A stretch of 64,000 nucleotides of DNA, taken from NCBI GenBank assembly GCA_921293015.1, contig OV121081.1:61273022-61337021 (forward strand), read 5' to 3'. Position 1 is the stretch's first letter, and each line of letters begins with the position of its first letter. Of the stretch, positions 8,401-62,504 are shown piece by piece. The stretch is from Phorcus lineatus. Taxonomy: Eukaryota; Mollusca; Gastropoda; Trochida; Trochidae. A program made the position numbers and the translations under genes. Below the pieces are notes generated by a model. The model did no database searches. It had not been told where the DNA came from and worked only from the letters and a program-made list of their open reading frames with translations.

Positions 8401-8640
8401 TTATCTGGAGCAAATATTTGCAATACTTCTATGAACTATTTTAATACTTTCTCTTTCCTTAAAACCCCATATTTCAGCTCCATATGTTAGAATTGGAACT
8501 ATTTCATCAAAAATATGAAAACCTTCATTCAGTGACACGTCATAGTTTCGAATAAATGATTTAATAGGCCACAGTGCCTTAGTAGCTTGATCTGATAACG
8601 TTTTACATGCTCTTGTCCAAACCAATTTGGGAGTTATCAC
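8401..8640 (-). pseudogene. LINE reverse transcriptase thumb fragment
   Basis: 79 codons in the same frame as the palm fragment directly upstream. The key motif is VPILTYGAEIWGF followed by an amphipathic helix. It ends at a stop before the conserved GECGR segment, which continues in another frame. Confidence 0.8.
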
Positions 8641-8646
8641 AAGTCC

Positions 8647-9081
8647 TTAATATTTATAGAAATTGACAGTTTCCATTCCGGTACCATTATAAAATCCTTT
8701 TTCATGTCTTGATAAAGGTAGACCCATTTTAAACACAATTATTTTACTTTTGTCAATATTTATGTCCATGCCCCATCTATGAGAGTACATATACAAGGCG
8801 TCAATACGACGCTGTAATCTAACAACAGTGTCAGCAACAAACGCCAAATCATCTGCAAATAACAGAGCAATAATATTCAACATTTTTGCGGAGATAAATA
8901 TACCATCATCAAACTCATTTTGTAAAGAAAATGCAAGCTCATTAATGAACAATGAGAATAGTACCGGGCTAAGGACGCAGCCTTGCCGAACCCCACAGGT
9001 ACTATCAAAATATTCAGTTAATTTCATACCATACTCATATGTTACAGTGGTTTTAACATTATTGTCCATATTCTTAATCAC
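8647..9081 (-). pseudogene. LINE reverse transcriptase palm domain fragment
   Basis: 144 codons. The GVRQGC-VLSP motif (about residues 30-40) and the FADD catalytic box (about 75-78) are intact. The segment is cut off upstream by truncation and downstream by an in-frame TAA. No active endonuclease domain is present. Confidence 0.85.
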
Positions 9082-11410
9082 CTTAAAGAAGTTACCATGA
9101 ATTCCTTTATGTAAAAGAACATACAGTAATTTAAACCGTGTACTACGTGTAAGTAAGTGTTATCATGATATTTAACTGACGAGCAGATTCATACATATAA
9201 TATCATATATCAGTATGTAAAGTTAAACACTTTGAGGCTTCTGTACTGCAGATATACAAGTTATCAAACAGTTCAAACGACTTTGGCATATAACAACGTG
9301 GTTCATTACATTTATGTTTATATACATATGAAGTTTTGATTGCTTTTAATGCAGGACGCTTTCGAATTACAAATTTTCATTCATGGCAAATATCGACGTT
9401 GTTTTAAGAACCATAATGTTCTTGTTTCAAAAGCAATATACAGTGCAAAAAGAGAAAGTTCATTCTAATGTTTCCTTTTAATTCAATAATTATTTTTTTT
9501 ATTTCTTTACATAGCTGTCAATTTTCAGTCTTTGGCCTTAAGTTGAATATATTAGTAATGTTACTTACTGTATCATGACAATGGTTTGACAATCTCCATA
9601 TGAGGTCGAAAATCAATCATGGACACGGATGATGTTTGTTGTTCATTTCACTGTCGTGTTATTTTGATTGCTTACGATCCTCAGTTCATCCGCTTCTATC
9701 AAACCAAGAAATTGATTTTAACATTACATATGAAAACTGTTAACATCAAATGATTTCTGTTTCATACTTGTTCAGTGAAGAGGTTTCTGTGCTAATCTCA
9801 AAACATTTTAATCCAAATAGGTACCTATTGATGAAATCATAGTCCTGAGAAATGTCAAAATGGTCTGATGATGTGGATAAGAGATCTCCTTTAAGAACAC
9901 ATTTTATTTCCTGGTACTAATGGCTTTATTTCCTAGAATATTGACTTAAGATTGGTATAGATTTTTACCATCGATTTTTTTAATATAAAACGTGAGGCCA
10001 CTCTATGTTACAGCATGGCTCTTAGGCAAAAAACTAAGTTCATCTTCCAAAAAATTGATACAAAATAGTGCTGTCCTCTATTCCTTAAATAATTTACAGT
10101 TTAAATGTTAGATGATAAAATATATAACATGTTTTTTGTTAGATTGCGAAGGCTAGAGAGGAGACATTCCCACATTTGCTGCATCTGTGCTATCATTTAT
10201 AACTCACAGCTTATCTGCATTATCGGTTTGGGATGATGTATTCATAGTTTTACCCGCATGTCGAGTAACTTCAATCTGAGTTTATTCATGAATTAATCAT
10301 CCTATGACCCTGAACAGACAGAGTACATAACTGTTCGCCCTGTATGATACGTGTCAGGCATTACAAAATCATGTGTAACCAATTTTGCAAGTCATCAAAC
10401 AGCTGAAACATATTCAAATAATTATCATATTTATGAAAGTATCGACCAATACAGATATTCTTGAACATGTCGCCCGTCTGAATCACATATACTGGAAGTT
10501 TGACCATGTTTCTTTTCGGTATAGTAAGAGTGTGGTTTACGTCATGTCTGAAAGAATTTCACAATTTGTGTATAACACAAACGTTAGAAATATCGTCGAA
10601 ATTAATTTTGATGTTGGATTCTTCTCATATGTAGACATTTAAGAAAATGACAAAAGTGAGGTCTGGTTTTGGAAATTAGGGTGACAAAACAGGTTTATTT
10701 ATTTTGAACCCCAGTTTCATAACAAGACATAATTAGATACAAGATGTACATGATGACAAAAAGTTGCAACTCTGTCGGAAAATGTTTGTTTATATTCCAA
10801 TTGACCTGAAATCTATCTTGCCTAATCATTGAGACATTTGCATATTGGGGTGGTCGTAAATATTTATTTGACTTCCAGTGGCATGTGTAGCTTTCATAAC
10901 AACTGCGCATTGCCTCAAAATAATTGGGGTAAACAACACTGTAATTGAATATTCAAGTAGTAAACCTCTTCTATTTTTATTTTATGTTTTGATATGTATT
11001 TTGCTTAAATAAAGTGATAAGATCATGTCACAATTATCTTTTTTAATGATATCAAAATTCATTTGGATTCAAGTTCAGTAAATAACCCTTCAAATAATCA
11101 AACTGTTTCATTTGAAGGAAACCATCACTTTACACCCATCTTAAGGTCAATACAGAAGGGACGACTTTCCCAGGAGACCTTTCAACATTGTGCACTAGCG
11201 TTCTCAACATTTTTTTAGGATACGCGGTTAACTTTGAAAAAAGAAAAACAAACATCTCTGACAAACCAAACGAAAAAAGAACTGACGTTAAGCCTGTACA
11301 CGAAATGTTTACAAAGGTTATATACATTCATTTGGGTTCACGAAAATGTTTATTGCTTCTCATCACTTTGTCACTATTTGTGGAATCACTTGAAATAACC
11401 TTTATCTAAA

Positions 11411-30448: not shown

Positions 30449-30717
30449 TGCAAATTAAACGTAACTATCTAAAGCAAAGATACGCTAAACAGTAAATCTT
30501 ATGCAAGAATCGATAGGAGAGCATACATGTATAGGATAAACAAGCATGCGGCAGTTTTCATCAACCCTTCCTTGAAGTGTCAAATTTGACAATGTATTCG
30601 ACGTGTATGGCGCTATTGTGTGTCACACGTGCAGCTCAGTGGTTCTTTTGGGGAACACACTCTCAAAGCATTTAAAAGTGTCCATGATGATTTATCATAA
30701 TTATCACAATCTGCATA

Positions 30718-30861
30718 TGTAACAGAAGTGATTGTGAGATCACCCCCCGCGGGATTCGAACCCGGGACCTCCGGGTGAGAGTCCTACACTCTACCGATTC
30801 AGCCAAAAAGATATCCCTCTGGCCAAAGCCAGTAGGAATGCTTTTATTTCACCCTGCCACA
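30718..30861 (-). repeat. TRIM 3' LTR (144 bp)
   Basis: On the minus strand it runs TGTGGCAGG to CTGTTACA and has AATAAA near its start. A Pol III type A box TGGCTGAATCGG (30794-30805) and a perfect B box GGTTCGAATCC (30752-30762) lie about 31 nt apart. Confidence 0.9.
30745..30812 (-). promoter_or_regulatory. tRNA-like segment with Pol III A and B boxes in the 3' LTR
   Basis: The segment resembles a degenerate tRNA. The anticodon-loop equivalent CTCTCAC matches tRNA-Glu(CUC), but the acceptor and anticodon stems do not pair properly, so it is not a working tRNA gene. It may act as an internal Pol III promoter. Confidence 0.7.
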
Positions 30862-30969
30862 TACACCCCTCTCCACAAAGTGACTCGTCCTCGAGTCCAG
30901 CCATTTTGAGTTATCAAGCACCTGAGTTCGACGTACTCAGGGTGCAGTGAGCACTTGGGAGTTGCCCCG

Positions 30970-30987
30970 GCCCCACGTTGGGCGCCA
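30970..30987 (-). promoter_or_regulatory. TRIM primer binding site for tRNA-Lys(CUU)
   Basis: The plus strand reads GCCCCACGTTGGGCGCCA, the 3' end of animal tRNA-Lys(CUU) including CCA. The minus strand is therefore its 18-nt complement, lying two bases inside the 5' LTR. This is where reverse transcription would be primed. Confidence 0.88.
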
Positions 30988-30989
30988 AA

Positions 30990-31133
30990 TGTAACAGAAG
31001 TGATTGTGAGATCACCTCCCGCGGGTTTCGAACCCGGGACCTCCGTGTGAGAGTCCTACACTCTACCGATTCAGCCAAAGAGATATCTCTCTGGCCAAAG
31101 CCAGTAGGAATGCTTTTATTTCACCCTGCCACA
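30990..31133 (-). repeat. TRIM 5' LTR (144 bp)
   Basis: Same length as the other LTR with five base differences. The A box is unchanged (31066-31077). The B box is GGTTCGAAACC (31024-31034), with one change from consensus. Confidence 0.9.
31017..31084 (-). promoter_or_regulatory. tRNA-like segment with Pol III A and B boxes in the 5' LTR
   Basis: Same arrangement as in the 3' LTR; here the loop context is CTCTCACACGG, which is a little closer to invertebrate tRNA-Glu. Its position in the 5' LTR is where a promoter would drive the element. Confidence 0.7.
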
Positions 31134-32714
31134 CATAGGTATTTGCATTCCAATATCCCCCACTTTTTTAAGAGTATAAATACGTTTATCAGTTATGTTT
31201 ATGTGTCTTCACACTACACCTGTTTGGAAATCCTTTGAGGCTTTTATCTACTTGTATTGACAGAATAATCTATATCTCATAATTGTTTTCACTTTTTGAT
31301 GTAACAAATTATTTCTTCTTTCAAAAGATTCAAGCCATTATTTATGTTGATCAGGGCCTGGATTTTTGTATATTATATAACCTCTCATTACCTTATTTGT
31401 TGTTAAGGACATATTCTAAGCTATCCTAGTTATACCACTTTTTCGGCTTTTGGCCCGAAAGAGATCAGGGGATTAGGAAGGAGCGAAAGAGTATTCATAT
31501 ACGCTGATTTAGCAGGATGAGTTAAATGCGCATTGGAATGATTTCGCACCTATTCAGCTAACTATTGTTCTCTCTTTAGGATTTCAACACCTGTATTAGC
31601 AAAGATTGTTTCGAGTTTAAATGATCGTTTCTTTCGACGCATCGTCTTAATTCTAACTGCAAAATTGCCTTCATAAAAAATGTTGAGTCGTCGAAAAGGG
31701 TAAATGATTATACCATTTAAGAACATAAAATAATATTTATATTTAGATATTTATTTTAATCTTTTAGCAGATGAAGTATGTACAAACAACGTGCATCTCT
31801 ATTTGTTAGTTGTGTCATGTTTTGATGATATCCTAATATAAAAAAATAATTAAATATTGCTGCAGACTCTTGCTTTGTGTGTAGGCTCTATGTGCTTTGT
31901 TTCTAAATTGCTCCGCATTACTACTCATAATAGTCGAACGCACTGACACCAATGGAGATGCATCTACCCCAATACCAGTAATTCGCTGGGTTTTGATTAC
32001 GATCAAATGTTCACAGAGTACATCTTAACGTTACCCTCGGCTTTTATGAGAGGAATATAAAGAATATCAAGGACCTGTTGAAATCAATCGATGTATACAA
32101 TCAGTTCATTAAAAAATAAGTTTTTCTTAGATGACCCTGCTATATACGCCAATAATTCATCATTCTCTACTTGTTTTTGATGCGTTATGTATAAGTTATG
32201 AATGTTAAGCTTGTAAATGTAAATATCATAACAATGTAAAAATCATTTCTTTCTCTCTCTTGAACCGAATATTTTTGTTCACTGTTCGTATAGTGGCATC
32301 GGGTATACTTAGTAATATAACTACAAAGAAATTTCAAAATGAAAATTATGAATTTTTGAAAGGCCACAAAATTCATGTGCCCCTCACTTCTAAGACTAAA
32401 AAAAATACTTACATCAGATGACCAAACATCATTTTTAAATTCCTTTAACCTAGGACGTTACAAAAATATAATCACTACTTCCTAACTTCAAGCAATACAC
32501 GACATCATATAGTTTCATTTTTTTTTCTTAATGAAACTATAAACATGTACGCTAAACGAAGACTTAAAAGCAAATCCTATCATCTGTCATTGCTTGTCTA
32601 AAGGAGAAGATTCTAAAACAGTAGCACTGCAAGCGTAAAGCGTTTCTTATGCCGAATATCCTTGAAAAGCAACTAAGTACCTACGAAAATAACTCTCAGA
32701 CTGTGAGAGTGTTT

Positions 32715-60600: not shown

Positions 60601-62504
60601 ACATCATTTAATAGGATTTATGTTCCACTTAAACTTTCTTGGCACTTCCTTGTTTAAGTGTCTTGTTTCCCAATTTATAGCCAATGCACACAGTCGAATC
60701 CCAGATTGTAGTTGTGGTGTTGTCACAAGTCAGAGGTAGCAGGGCGGACTGCAGAGGGTAACTTCTCTCTTGAAATGATGCCATTGAAATCTGTTATTTC
60801 CAGCGCTGACGGCAACTATGAAGTGACTCTGATGACAAAGGCAACTCTTCATCCTAATGGCCTTGTTGTGTGGGAGCCGCCGGCCATCTACAAGAGCTCT
60901 TGTATCATTATGGTCAAGTTCTTCCCATTCGATATCCAGCAGTGCAAAATGAAGTTCGGTTCATGGACTTACGATGGCTTTGAAGTTGATCTGGTCCATG
61001 TATGTTCGCCTACGGTAGGCCCTTCTGCAAGGATATCCCAAGGAGTGGATCTGCGAGACTTCTACCAGAGTGTTGAGTGGGACATCTTGGAGGTATGGGC
61101 AGAGAAGAACACCAGAAGATACCCTTGCTGCCACGAACCGTATCCAGATATTACTTTCGAAGTTCACATTAAAAGAAAAACTCTCTTCCATACAGTAAAT
61201 ATGATCATTCCTTGTGTAGCTATTTCCTTCCTTACGGTTTTGGTTTTCTACCTACCATCAGATTCAGGAGAAAAGGTCACCCTCTGTATTTCCATCCTGC
61301 TGTCACTCACTGTGTTTTTCTTGCTACTGGCAGAGATCATTCCACCAACTTCTATCGACGTTCCCCTGATCGGCAAATACCTTCTTTTCACCATGATTCT
61401 TGTGACGTTGTCTATTATAGTGACAGTTATAGTACTCAACGTACATTTCCGGTCACCTTCAACACATACCATGTCTCCCTGGGTGAGACAGGTCTTCCTT
61501 AATATTCTTCCAAAACTGCTGGTCATGCGCAGACCACAACAGGATTTTGAAAAGAAACAGAAAGTTGTCGTGCGAACTTGTAATGGCTTGGAAGTGCGAG
61601 ACACTACACAGGATCTGCGACATTCCAATTTAGGGCCTGAGTTTGAGTCTCAAAGGGCAAGTGATTTCGGACTTTCCTTCGAGACGACTGAAACACAAAC
61701 TGGCCCGGTGTCGAAAGGACGGTACTGGAGCAAAGAGGTGCAGGATGCTATTGAGTCAGTCACGTTCATCGCGGAACATATGAAATACGAGGATTATGAA
61801 TCATCGGTGAGATACGTTTGTACTTGATTATCTCTTTTAAAAGGGAAATTCTTTATAAAGCAGGTAATTTTGCTAAGCCATTTCCTTCTTTCGGATGTAG
61901 AAAAATTCACCCAGTATACGCTTTATATTCGAAGCGTAGATATTTGCTCATATGTTTCGAGGATGGTTTGGGCCTTCCATTCCAGAATTAGGACACATAG
62001 GTTTTGTAGCGGAATGTACTTGGGAACCAATTTTTCATCTTAAGTACAGCAAAGTAGTAATTTAAATTATATGTATAACCTATTTATTGTTTTGACTCAA
62101 ATATAACGTTAAACAATAATGTTTCAGTTTAGATAAACATGTGTTACGTCAACAATGATCAATTGCAGTTTGCTAATTTGCATGTATAAAAGTCTAGAGA
62201 TTTAACTTTTTTCAGTGATATGACAAATCTTTGGAACTTACATTCTTCTTATAAATACATACACAACTAAAACACATGTGATACCTCATTATACACATTA
62301 TAAGATTTTCATATCTTTTTTTTTCTTTCGTCACAGATAATTGAAGATTGGAAATACGTGGCCATGGTTTTAGACCGTCTATTCCTGTGGATCTTCACAA
62401 CTGCGTGTGTTGTTGGAACCATCGGCATCATCCTGCAGGCTCCGACCCTCTATGACGACCGGGAACCAATCACATCCGAGGACTTTCCAACGGAGGCTTG
62501 CTGA
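36471..62504 (+). CDS. Nicotinic acetylcholine receptor alpha-type subunit (five coding exons, 509 aa)
   Basis: This is a cys-loop ligand-gated ion channel subunit that binds acetylcholine at the cell surface and, as a pentamer, conducts cations. The coding exons are 36471-36674, 54371-54415, 57832-57941, 60804-61806 and 62337-62504, all with GT-AG introns, and they join to 509 residues. Seen in order: a signal peptide (about 1-23); sequon N49-E-T; loop D Trp80; loop A Tyr118; a Cys-loop C153-C167 with FPFD and 13 residues between the cysteines; loop B Trp174; loop C Y226-P-C-C229 with Tyr233; M1 from about 248; M2 277-296 preceded by Gly-Glu; M3 about 310-331; and M4 about 466-487. The vicinal cysteines make it alpha-type. 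Glu276 before M2 points to cation selectivity, and the M2 pattern is alpha7-like. Length is normal for the family. The exact orthologue and whether it forms homopentamers are not determined. Confidence 0.96.
37406..37543. repeat. Tandem E-box (CACGTG) cluster in intron 1
   Basis: Six CACGTG sites start at 37406, 37425, 37465, 37484, 37523 and 37538. They come from a repeat unit of about 59 bp present just over twice. CACGTG is the E-box bound by bHLH factors such as Myc/Max, USF and CLOCK/BMAL. It lies about 730 bp past exon 1, where intronic enhancers are common. Function is inferred. Confidence 0.75.
38751..38785. repeat. Small hairpin in intron 1
   Basis: CTACATCTTATT..GCA pairs with TGCAATAAGATGTAG as a 15-bp stem, with a two-base TT bulge and an AGG loop. 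The role is unknown; it could be chance or a remnant of a palindromic element. Confidence 0.45.
39634..39662. promoter_or_regulatory. Inverted pair of E-boxes, CACGTGGC/GCCACGTG
   Basis: CACGTGGC at 39634-39641 and its exact reverse complement at 39655-39662 are separated by 13 bases. It may be a paired bHLH site or a small hairpin in the intron 1 transcript. Confidence 0.4.
43943..44262. mobile_element. TTAA-flanked MITE (320 bp)
   Basis: The element begins TTAAAGGGACAGT and ends ACTGTCCCTTTAA, so the ends are 13-base inverted repeats with TTAA at both borders. TTAA target duplication is typical of piggyBac and Kolobok superfamilies. There is no coding frame inside, so it is non-autonomous. 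It sits within nAChR intron 1. A diverged relative lies in intron 3. Confidence 0.75.
47792..48370. repeat. Left arm of a 580-bp inverted repeat in intron 1
   Basis: The arm is nearly identical to the reverse complement of 50240-50820. It carries a 73-codon open frame on the minus strand (48121-48342) matched almost residue for residue by the frame in the other arm. The frame has no motif I recognise. The arm could be one of two inverted copies of an unknown element. Confidence 0.85.
48371..50239. other. Spacer of the long inverted repeat
   Basis: 1.87 kb of AT-rich DNA with a MITE-like element at 48,983-49,235. I see no gene in it; no transposase motif was found that would make the whole structure one transposon. 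Confidence 0.6.
48983..49235. mobile_element. MITE-like element with CAGGCCCGTAG termini, containing G16
   Basis: CAGGCCCGTAG at 48983-48993 and its perfect reverse complement at 49225-49235 bound a 253-bp element. Termini starting CAG with this kind of sequence are frequent in hAT-type non-autonomous elements of marine invertebrates. It contains a run of 16 G at 49010-49025. I could not find an 8-bp target duplication, which weakens the hAT assignment. Confidence 0.5.
50240..50820. repeat. Right arm of the 580-bp inverted repeat
   Basis: This is the inverted copy of 47792-48370 across a 1.87-kb spacer. The open frame 50250-50492 (plus) has an upstream extension of seven residues, then the same 73 residues with only a two-residue swap near position 8-9. 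Outer ends share TATGGAAGGGGATGTGTGCC. Arm identity is high, so the duplication is young or homogenised. Confidence 0.85.
54371..54415 (+). CDS. nAChR coding exon 2: conserved 45-bp exon (loop D)
   Basis: The exon has 45 bases and encodes 15 residues, [15 protein letters not shown], including loop D Trp80 of the ligand site. The acceptor is TCTGTTTAAG and the donor is GTGATG; both flanking introns are phase 0. A 45-bp exon at exactly this place is a hallmark of nAChR genes across animals. It is too short to be found as an open reading frame and was located by protein motif. It lies 17.7 kb from exon 1. Confidence 0.95.
54416..57831 (+). other. nAChR intron 2 (3.4 kb)
   Basis: Phase 0 intron between the 45-bp and 110-bp exons. 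It is AT-rich sequence in which I recognise no gene, repeat or alternative copy of the neighbouring exons. Confidence 0.9.
57832..57941 (+). CDS. nAChR coding exon 3: conserved 110-bp exon (loop A)
   Basis: The exon has 110 bases, encodes residues 84-119 and ends two bases into codon 120. It begins EWYDRKLTW and includes the YGGVD, VPS and WLPDIVLYN motifs. The acceptor is CTTGCGGCCAG and the donor is GTAAGT, phase 2. A 110-bp exon following a 45-bp exon is again the canonical nAChR arrangement. The split Asn codon (AA/C) is completed exactly by the first base of exon 4. Confidence 0.96.
57942..60803 (+). other. nAChR intron 3 (2.9 kb)
   Basis: Phase 2 intron that splits codon 120. It holds a degenerate MITE copy near 59.2-59.5 kb, and otherwise nothing I recognise. 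Confidence 0.9.
59213..59505. mobile_element. Degenerate relative of the intron 1 TTAA MITE
   Basis: The stretch 59,408-59,505 aligns by eye with 44,169-44,262: CCCTCTGAA, GGCAT and TTTAAGAAAT are shared at the same spacing, and the right end is again CTTTAA. The left half aligns weakly. An open frame on the minus strand (59284-59589) runs through it and is not considered a gene. Confidence 0.45.
60804..61806 (+). CDS. nAChR coding exon 4: Cys-loop, loop C, M1-M3 and cytoplasmic loop
   Basis: This 1,003-base exon completes Asn120 and encodes residues 121-454. It carries ADGNYEV, the Cys-loop (C153-C167), SWTYDG (loop B), YPCC (loop C), M1, the GEK-M2 pore, M3, the amphipathic post-M3 helix near 341-361 and the cytoplasmic loop up to the helix that leads into M4. 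The acceptor TTATTTCCAG ends at 60803 and the donor GTGAGA starts at 61807. The open frame extends upstream to an ATG at 60712, but that part is intron. Open frames inside it in another plus frame (61212-61502) and on the minus strand (61248-61628) are shadows. Confidence 0.96.
61807..62336 (+). other. nAChR intron 4 (530 bp)
   Basis: Phase 0 intron with donor GTGAGA and a good pyrimidine tract before the acceptor TTTCGTCACAG. Nothing else is seen in it. Confidence 0.9.
62337..62504 (+). CDS. nAChR coding exon 5: M4 and C-terminus
   Basis: This exon encodes residues 455-509 and ends at TGA 62502-62504. It starts [18 protein letters not shown], the family motif that joins the cytoplasmic helix to M4. 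It continues through M4 to the highly conserved LQAPTLYDD and a short extracellular tail ending in Cys509. The acceptor is TTTCGTCACAG, phase 0. Splitting M4 from the rest of the protein is common in this family. Confidence 0.96.

What the first reader, a model, noticed from the sequence alone, without database searches (positions are those of the whole stretch)
30718..31133. Miniature LTR retrotransposon whose LTRs contain a tRNA-like Pol III promoter
Both 144-bp LTRs carry a consensus A box and a B box inside a tRNA-Glu-like segment. LTR elements normally rely on Pol II promoters. Plant Cassandra TRIMs carry a 5S rRNA promoter in the LTR; a tRNA-type version in an animal TRIM would be a parallel case and might let a 416-bp element be transcribed by Pol III while being copied by the LTR machinery of another element. 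Structure is seen; Pol III use is inferred.
Basis: partly seen in the sequence, partly recalled or inferred. Interest (0 to 1): 0.85.

Follow-up and report, generated by a model that had tools for sequence, protein, structure and literature searches.

The report
Tiny retrotransposon carrying a tRNA-like promoter
This is a 416-bp hitch-hiking retrotransposon whose end repeats carry a tRNA-like promoter, a kind already described in animals in 2024; what is added here is genomic evidence, in the form of chimeric insertions, of which larger element copies it.

Summary
Window 30718-31133 is a complete 416-bp miniature LTR retrotransposon on the MINUS strand: 144-bp TG..CA LTRs (5 differences), 128-bp non-coding core, tRNA-Lys1,2 primer-binding site, polypurine tract, 4-bp target duplication CATA/CATA, A and B boxes in both LTRs. 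The host genome holds 69 exact primer-site junctions of this kind, the window's included; 37 of the 40 copies examined first have exact 4-bp duplications.

The kind is not new: tRNA-promoter TRIMs were named Helenus (Kojima 2024, PMC10886601), known from bivalves and five other animal phyla. Pol III use remains inferred; the tRNA-Glu label is unsupported.

The addition is the copying machinery. A Gypsy-type element (about 9.7 kb; 881-bp LTRs) shares the primer site, polypurine-tract end and LTR start, and little else. Four chimeric insertions (partner LTR + Helenus core + Helenus LTR) at different sites are each bounded by a perfect 4-bp duplication, so they were joined before integration. In the six chimeras whose junction was printed, the switch lies at the shared primer site, as expected for plus-strand transfer between co-packaged elements. 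One further composite holds 58 nt of host tRNA-Lys plus CCA: a mature primer tRNA copied in.

The parts
30990..31133 (-). 5' LTR (144 bp, TGTGGCAGGG...CTGTTACA read on the minus strand)
30718..30861 (-). 3' LTR (144 bp; 5 differences from the 5' LTR)
30862..30989 (-). Internal region, 128 bp, no open reading frame of 110 aa or more overlaps it
30970..30987 (-). Primer-binding site TGGCGCCCAACGTGGGGC, complementary to the 3' end (with CCA) of tRNA-Lys(CUU)
   Evidence: named PBS Lys1,2 in PMC1084362 and PMC8775094 (passages); matches host tRNA-Lys gene end + CCA
30862..30874 (-). Polypurine tract region GGAGAGGGGTGTA before the 3' LTR; partner has GGGGGGTGAA at the same place
31066..31077 (-). 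A box TGGCTGAATCGG, 5' LTR
31024..31034 (-). B box GGTTCGAAACC, 5' LTR
30794..30805 (-). A box TGGCTGAATCGG, 3' LTR
30752..30762 (-). B box GGTTCGAATCC, 3' LTR
31013..31084 (-). tRNA-like segment in the 5' LTR (Rfam tRNA 17.4 bits, below the cut-off of 29)
31077..31081 (-). TCTTT overlapping the first base of the A box, possible moderate Pol III terminator (5' LTR); TCTTTTT at 30805-30811 in this copy's 3' LTR
   Evidence: terminator strength from PMC8466645 (passages)
30714..30717 (.). Target site duplication CATA
31134..31137 (.). Target site duplication CATA

Best explanation
A Helenus-type TRIM. Shown: a non-coding 416-bp LTR element with tRNA-type A and B boxes in both LTRs, present in many copies in this genome with 4-bp target duplications and a tRNA-Lys primer site. 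Shown: a Gypsy-type element with the same primer site, a matching polypurine-tract end and a near-identical LTR start exists in the genome, and chimeras with the partner's LTR fused at the primer site to the Helenus body integrated as single products. Inferred: Pol III starts the RNA near LTR position 40-50, just upstream of the A box; the RNA is packaged in the Gypsy particle, primed by tRNA-Lys and reverse-transcribed, and the partner's integrase inserts it. Inferred: a chimera forms when the partner's plus-strand strong-stop DNA (partner LTR + primer site) lands on Helenus minus-strand DNA through the shared primer site. The confidence is for identity and partner; for the Pol III start alone it is about 0.75.
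For: TG..CA ends in 40 of 40 and exact 4-bp TSD in 37 of 40 copies. The 18-nt PBS is exact in 33 of 42 internal regions. Partner copy L071: LTRs 99.9% identical over 884 aligned bases, LTR of 881 bp, TSD TATG, PPT GGGGGGTGAA, LTR start TGTGACAGGG against Helenus TGTGGCAGGG; RT, RNase H and integrase matches in that order, and a PNMA-like gag piece in the frame before. Helenus and partner share 21 bp internally (the PBS with one base before and two after) and no LTR match beyond short pieces. Chimeras with a complete partner LTR, L073, L074, L075, L077, have TSDs TACA, ATTA, GTTA, TAAA, 4 of 4 exact, without shared flanks among these four. Of all 69 exact PBS+CGGGGC junctions in the genome, 63 have a Helenus LTR upstream, 5 have partner-LTR sequence, 1 is unidentified. 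Composite L048: partner LTR, then 58 nt identical to host tRNA-Lys loci plus a CCA absent from the gene, then Helenus, with TSD CAAG/CAAG. Pol III side: boxes kept in young copies; 34 of 40 copies have no T4 run on the sense strand, while the partner LTR has 9 T4 runs, TATA-like and AATAAA motifs.
Against: No transcript data: Pol III use is not shown. Box retention in young copies is weak evidence because young copies have few mutations anywhere. Lack of T4 runs is not rare by chance (43.5% of shuffled elements have none, mean 0.72 expected against 0.175 seen), and the copies are related. No reciprocal chimera (Helenus LTR + partner core) was found with the exact pattern; as only 5 exact partner junctions exist, about 0.4 would be expected at the same rate, so this says little. 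L076 and L080 have cut-down partner LTRs; L078 and L079 are one duplicated locus without an exact TSD by my boundaries; L090's partner LTR is mostly inverted; L099 is unexplained. For yeast Ty3 a review describes a plus-strand transfer in which the PBS is not renewed from the tRNA and pairing is by R and U5 (PMC5371799, passages); that version would not by itself predict a switch at the PBS between elements with unlike LTRs.
Confidence: 0.85

Rival explanations
1. The LTR is transcribed by Pol II like ordinary LTRs, and the tRNA-like part is a passenger from an old SINE insertion.
For: An AATAAA lies at LTR positions 14-19 in the window copy, and 5 of the 19 youngest copies keep it. The tRNA-like part folds no better than shuffles and scores under the tRNA cut-off.
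Against: A box and GGTTC are intact in both LTRs of 19 of 19 copies with 0-1 LTR differences. Neither TATAA nor TATATA occurs in the element's sense strand, while the partner LTR has four TATA[AT]A. AATAAA is AGTAAA in both LTRs of 13 of the 19 youngest copies but AATAAA in 8 of 9 of the oldest, so much of the young set does without the canonical signal.
Confidence: 0.2
2. Two independent SINE insertions in tandem.
For: Two tRNA-like units in direct orientation.
Against: LTR-core-LTR structure at 40 of 40 loci, with LTR ends and 4-bp TSDs around the whole in 37; chimeras with an LTR element.
Confidence: 0.01
3. The chimeras arose by DNA recombination between inserted copies, not during reverse transcription.
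For: Segmental duplication happens at one chimera pair (L078/L079, 300-bp flanks 99-100% identical); four of the eight chimeras have no exact whole-unit TSD by my boundaries.
Against: 4 of 4 chimeras with a complete partner LTR have perfect 4-bp duplications joining the partner LTR end to the Helenus LTR end; recombination between two insertions would join unlike flanks.
Confidence: 0.06

Closest known systems
Helenus (animal, bivalve group), TRIMp3; Kojima 2024, PMC10886601
   Same: TRIM under 1000 bp as screened, tRNA-like A and B boxes in the LTRs, PBS and PPT, 4-bp TSDs, tRNA-Lys primer among the bivalve families, Gypsy machinery proposed from PBS similarity
   Different: The words chimer, hybrid, template switch and plus-strand occur 0 times in its main text; no chimera with a partner is described in the sections read. 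Whether this exact family is in its Table S1 could not be looked up.
Cassandra (plants)
   Same: TRIM with a small-RNA Pol III promoter in the LTR
   Different: 5S rRNA promoter, not tRNA-type; plants (as described in PMC10886601)
biv-TRIM (bivalves; PMC6934838, abstract and first part of Results read)
   Same: Bivalve TRIM; tandem LTR-core arrays also seen (two here: L042, L045)
   Different: 202-218 bp repeats and 77-80 bp core with no clear PBS; here 144 and 126-128 bp with a tRNA-Lys PBS
T+ SINEs such as B2 (PMC8466645, passages)
   Same: tRNA-type promoter, AATAAA and TCTTT motifs
   Different: Here the copying is LTR-type, with PBS, PPT and 4-bp TSD (LINE-type copying of SINEs is recalled and stated in PMC10886601)

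Membership tests
Helenus | TRIM: two LTRs, under 1000 bp, non-coding | tested here: met
   416 bp, LTRs 144 bp, no ORF of 110 aa or more overlaps
Helenus | tRNA-like sequence in the LTR with TRGCY..YGG A box and GGTTC B box | tested here: met
Helenus | PBS next to the 5' LTR and PPT next to the 3' LTR | tested here: met
Helenus | 4-bp TSD in animals | tested here: met
   37 of 40 exact
Helenus | Gypsy-type mobiliser in animals (proposed in the source paper) | tested here: met
   by chimeras, not by an experiment:
Helenus | Pol III transcription (expected but unproven in the source paper) | not testable with these tools
   no RNA data
Helenus | Identity to a published Helenus consensus or listed host | not testable with these tools
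   Repbase and supplements not held; G000 is unnamed
Cassandra | 5S rRNA sequence in the LTR | tested here: not met
   no 5S match at gathering score in the window or at E up to 1 in 30600-31250
biv-TRIM | 202-218 bp terminal repeats, 77-80 bp core | tested here: not met
   144 bp and 126-128 bp
functional tRNA gene | tRNA cloverleaf over the detection cut-off | tested here: not met
   17.4 bits in the window; best tRNA score listed in 11 other loci 27.1 bits, cut-off 29; in the others any tRNA match may be hidden behind a tmRNA T-arm match of the same clan
SINE | No LTRs/PBS/PPT; each unit with its own target duplication | tested here: not met

The most novel reading that the evidence does not exclude
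The LTR is a Pol III version of the U3-R-U5 plan: start site and a half-strength TCTTT terminator sit next to each other at the tRNA-like 5' edge, too close to stop RNA in the 5' LTR but able to end it in the 3' LTR, giving a very short R. In addition, tRNA-like LTRs could be renewed by the primer itself: reverse transcriptase can run through an unmodified tRNA-Lys primer and switch into the LTR at the shared A-box/D-arm sequence, as the L048 composite records.
Probability: 0.2. Interest if true: 0.75.

Novelty: new member of a known kind. Interest (0 to 1): 0.5.

Why it matters
For animal TRIMs that carry a tRNA-type promoter, the larger element that copies them has been inferred from primer-site similarity (PMC10886601, sections 3.6 and 4.2 read; for one fungal family that paper also shows a shared core with a Copia element). 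Chimeric insertions with intact target duplications are physical evidence for one Helenus-Gypsy pair, and suggest that sharing the primer site, polypurine-tract end and LTR start is enough. If Pol III is confirmed, a Pol III transcript would be a substrate for an LTR-type particle, which can be tested directly.

Tried and rejected
tRNA gene calling on the element: no tRNA over the cut-off. RNA folding of the tRNA-like segment: no better than shuffles. A T+ SINE-like polyadenylation model (AATAAA + TCTTT) was considered; AATAAA is AGTAAA in most of the youngest copies, so I do not rely on it. Four exact-pattern scans of the viral and prokaryote collections gave 0 matches, as expected for an animal element. 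The exact reciprocal chimera was sought and not found. Paper searches: 51 papers, 20 listed; 59 papers, 12 listed; apart from the papers opened, only listings were seen. 'Helenus'+'TRIM'+'retrotransposon' from 2023 on gives one paper. My statement that chimera evidence for a Helenus partner is an addition rests in this open-licence library only. Isotype of the tRNA-like part: only tRNA-Lys could be compared. The host species was not identified. Number of solo LTRs was not counted.

Full report
What is there. The element occupies 30718-31133 exactly as reported, but it reads on the minus strand. Its 5' LTR is 31133-30990 and its 3' LTR 30861-30718, with 5 differences in 144 positions. Next to the 5' LTR, after two bases, is TGGCGCCCAACGTGGGGC, the 18-nt primer-binding site named Lys1,2 in PMC1084362 and PMC8775094 (passages). 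It has no match in 100 shuffled windows and equals the complement of the host's own tRNA-Lys(CUU) gene end plus CCA. A purine tract precedes the 3' LTR. The insertion is bounded by CATA/CATA. The A and B boxes occur in both LTRs, in the sense orientation of the element.

Family in the genome. The window lies in an unnamed assembly of 957.8 Mb in 74 contigs. One search gave 42 full-length alignments and one partial one, the best 40 of 1027 candidates having been scored. The 42 lie at 40 loci, all of which I used: the window copy and 39 others. Of the 40, all have TG..CA ends and 37 an exact 4-bp duplication; the exceptions are L022, L038 and L043. L022 is part of a composite with its own duplication (below); L043 lies against partner sequence (locus L081); L038 misses by one letter. 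L042 and L045 are LTR-core-LTR-core-LTR arrays. LTR pairs differ at 0 to 8 positions, 10 of 40 at none, so the family has moved recently; the window copy, with 5, is older than most of this set (rank 32 of 40 by mismatches). The sample is biased towards copies like the window copy. The exact string PBS+CGGGGC occurs 69 times, with 0 in the reversed control: 29 of these lie in the first 40 loci and the other 40 were examined. That second set includes older copies: LTR pairs differ by 0 to 17 mismatches, besides gaps, among 21 full pairs.

Boxes. In 82 LTRs the A box is letter-exact in 77. Sorting the 40 copies by LTR difference, A box and GGTTC are intact in both LTRs in 19 of 19 (0-1 differences); A box in 12 of 12 and GGTTC in 11 of 12 (2-4); A box in 7 of 9 and GGTTC in 8 of 9 (5 or more). 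In 56 further full LTRs from the second set a pattern scan finds the A box in 44, GGTTC in 49 and TCTTT in 48, and a T4 run in 3. The tRNA-like segment is not a tRNA gene over the cut-off: 17.4 bits against 29. Among 11 copies with 0 or 1 LTR difference, a tRNA match is listed only for L034, at 27.1 bits; in the others such a match may be hidden behind a tmRNA T-arm match of the same clan. The segment folds no better than shuffles. The tRNA-Glu label could not be supported; against host tRNA-Lys(CUU) it has 47 identities over 73 nt, scoring above all 500 letter shuffles, but other isotypes were not compared.

The partner. Beside one copy (L022, enlarged as L048) lay a foreign LTR end. Searching with it (best 40 of 691 candidates scored) brought out a second LTR family, here 'partner'. 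In L071 two LTRs, 99.9% identical over 884 aligned bases, start about 8.8 kb apart, the LTR is 881 bp, the whole about 9.7 kb, and the target duplication is TATG. Pieces of its long reading frame match, in order, reverse transcriptase, RNase H and integrase, and a piece of the frame before it matches PNMA, a gag-like family; that order is the one of Gypsy (Ty3) elements (recalled). Helenus and partner share 21 bp at the primer-binding site (18 nt plus one base before and two after), the end of the polypurine tract (GGGGGGTGAA against GGGGGTGTA in most Helenus cores) and 9 of the first 10 LTR bases; no other clear similarity was found. In three chimeras (L074, L075, L077) the partner LTR starts TGTGGCAGGG, as in Helenus. 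The partner LTR has TATA-like motifs, AATAAA and nine T4 runs; 34 of 40 Helenus copies have no sense-strand T4 run, though 43.5% of shuffled elements have none either.

Chimeras. Eight loci carry partner LTR sequence, Helenus core and Helenus LTR in that order: L073 to L080. Four have a complete partner LTR with clear ends (L073, L074, L075, L077), and each of these four has an exact 4-bp duplication between the outer edge of the partner LTR and the outer edge of the Helenus LTR: TACA, ATTA, GTTA, TAAA. Among these four the 300-bp flanks show no similarity, so they are separate insertions. L078 and L079 are copies of one locus and have no exact duplication by my boundaries; L076 and L080 have cut-down partner LTRs and no exact duplication. 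In the six chimeras whose junction was printed (L073, L074, L076, L077; L075, L078) the partner's AAT spacer is followed by the primer-binding site, with mismatches in L075 and L078, and then Helenus core. In the genome-wide set of 69 exact junctions, the upstream LTR is Helenus in 63, partner in 5 (L073, L074, L076, L077, L090; in L090 most of the partner LTR is inverted) and unidentified in 1 (L099). Of the six exact 'partner spacer' strings, four are chimeras and two (L088, L089) are ordinary Helenus copies with identical LTRs that carry the partner-type spacer. The reciprocal chimera was not found, but only 5 exact partner junctions exist, so about 0.4 would be expected at the same rate.

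Reading of the chimeras. Exact target duplications around unlike ends mean that the chimera existed before integration. In retroviral replication plus-strand strong-stop DNA (LTR + primer site) is transferred to the minus strand by the primer-site complement (PMC13191261, passages). A partner strong-stop DNA landing on Helenus minus-strand DNA gives just this product. I infer that both RNAs were in one particle and used one reverse transcriptase and integrase. For yeast Ty3 a review describes another course, in which the first strong-stop DNA runs into the tRNA as a dead end and the PBS is not renewed from the tRNA (PMC5371799, passages); which course this Gypsy follows is unknown.

The tRNA composite. 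L048 has, between CAAG and CAAG: partner LTR with an internal deletion, AAT, the complement of host tRNA-Lys from its CCA to the D arm, a switch into Helenus tRNA-like/U3 sequence in reverse, then part of a Helenus core and a full LTR-core-LTR copy. The tRNA part is identical over 58 nt to four other loci; the two of them fetched are tRNA-Lys(CUU) genes by ARAGORN, and the one printed has no CCA after its end. So a mature primer tRNA was copied. A review states that on unmodified primer tRNA synthesis proceeds to its 5' end (PMC13191261). The switch lies in the stretch TCGGTAGAG shared by tRNA-Lys and the Helenus A-box region. It is one event; its bearing on the origin of tRNA-like LTRs is a hypothesis. 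PMC10886601 proposes SINE insertion instead and reports no complementarity between tRNA-like LTR parts and their PBS.

Layout hypothesis. TCTTT lies at LTR positions 53-57, overlapping the first base of the A box, in 79 of 82 LTRs (counting TCTTTTT). In B2 SINE tests TCTTT stopped about half of Pol III transcripts (PMC8466645, passages). If Pol III starts at about 40-50, the motif would be too near to act in the 5' LTR but could end RNA in the 3' LTR. None of this was tested on RNA.

Known or new. Helenus is described in PMC10886601 (abstract, Methods, Results, Discussion, legends and tables read): tRNA-like LTRs, 4-bp duplications in animals, families in bivalves of the subclass Pteriomorphia with Lys among the primers, Gypsy proposed as mobiliser by primer-site similarity. 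The defining features that could be tested are met here. The window element is therefore a member of a known kind; whether this very family is in the paper's table could not be checked. The chimera and composite evidence is the addition.

Noticed in passing
G000:C1:62768349-62778248 (L048), reverse complement about 8580-9500: Composite insertion: partner LTR, copy of mature tRNA-Lys primer including CCA, reversed Helenus U3, Helenus copy; whole bounded by CAAG/CAAG.
   Followed up: partly
L088, L089: Two Helenus copies with identical LTRs that have the partner-type AAT spacer before the PBS, perhaps traces of short exchange with the partner.
   Followed up: no
L042, L045: LTR-core-LTR-core-LTR tandem Helenus arrays with intact 4-bp duplications.
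   Followed up: no
L009-L047 and window, LTR positions 14-19: AATAAA in older copies (8 of 9) is AGTAAA in most young copies (13 of 19 with 0-1 LTR differences).
   Followed up: partly
G000:C32:44644752-44677159: Dense array of high-scoring tRNA matches, many at spacings of a few hundred bases: looks like a tandem tRNA gene cluster.
   Followed up: no
window 60712-61827 (+): Open frame matching the ligand-binding and transmembrane parts of a Cys-loop (acetylcholine-receptor-like) ion channel.
   Followed up: no
window 8647-9159 (-): Fragment matching reverse transcriptase (RVT_1).
   Followed up: no
L099: Helenus core and 3' LTR preceded by unidentified sequence instead of an LTR.
   Followed up: partly
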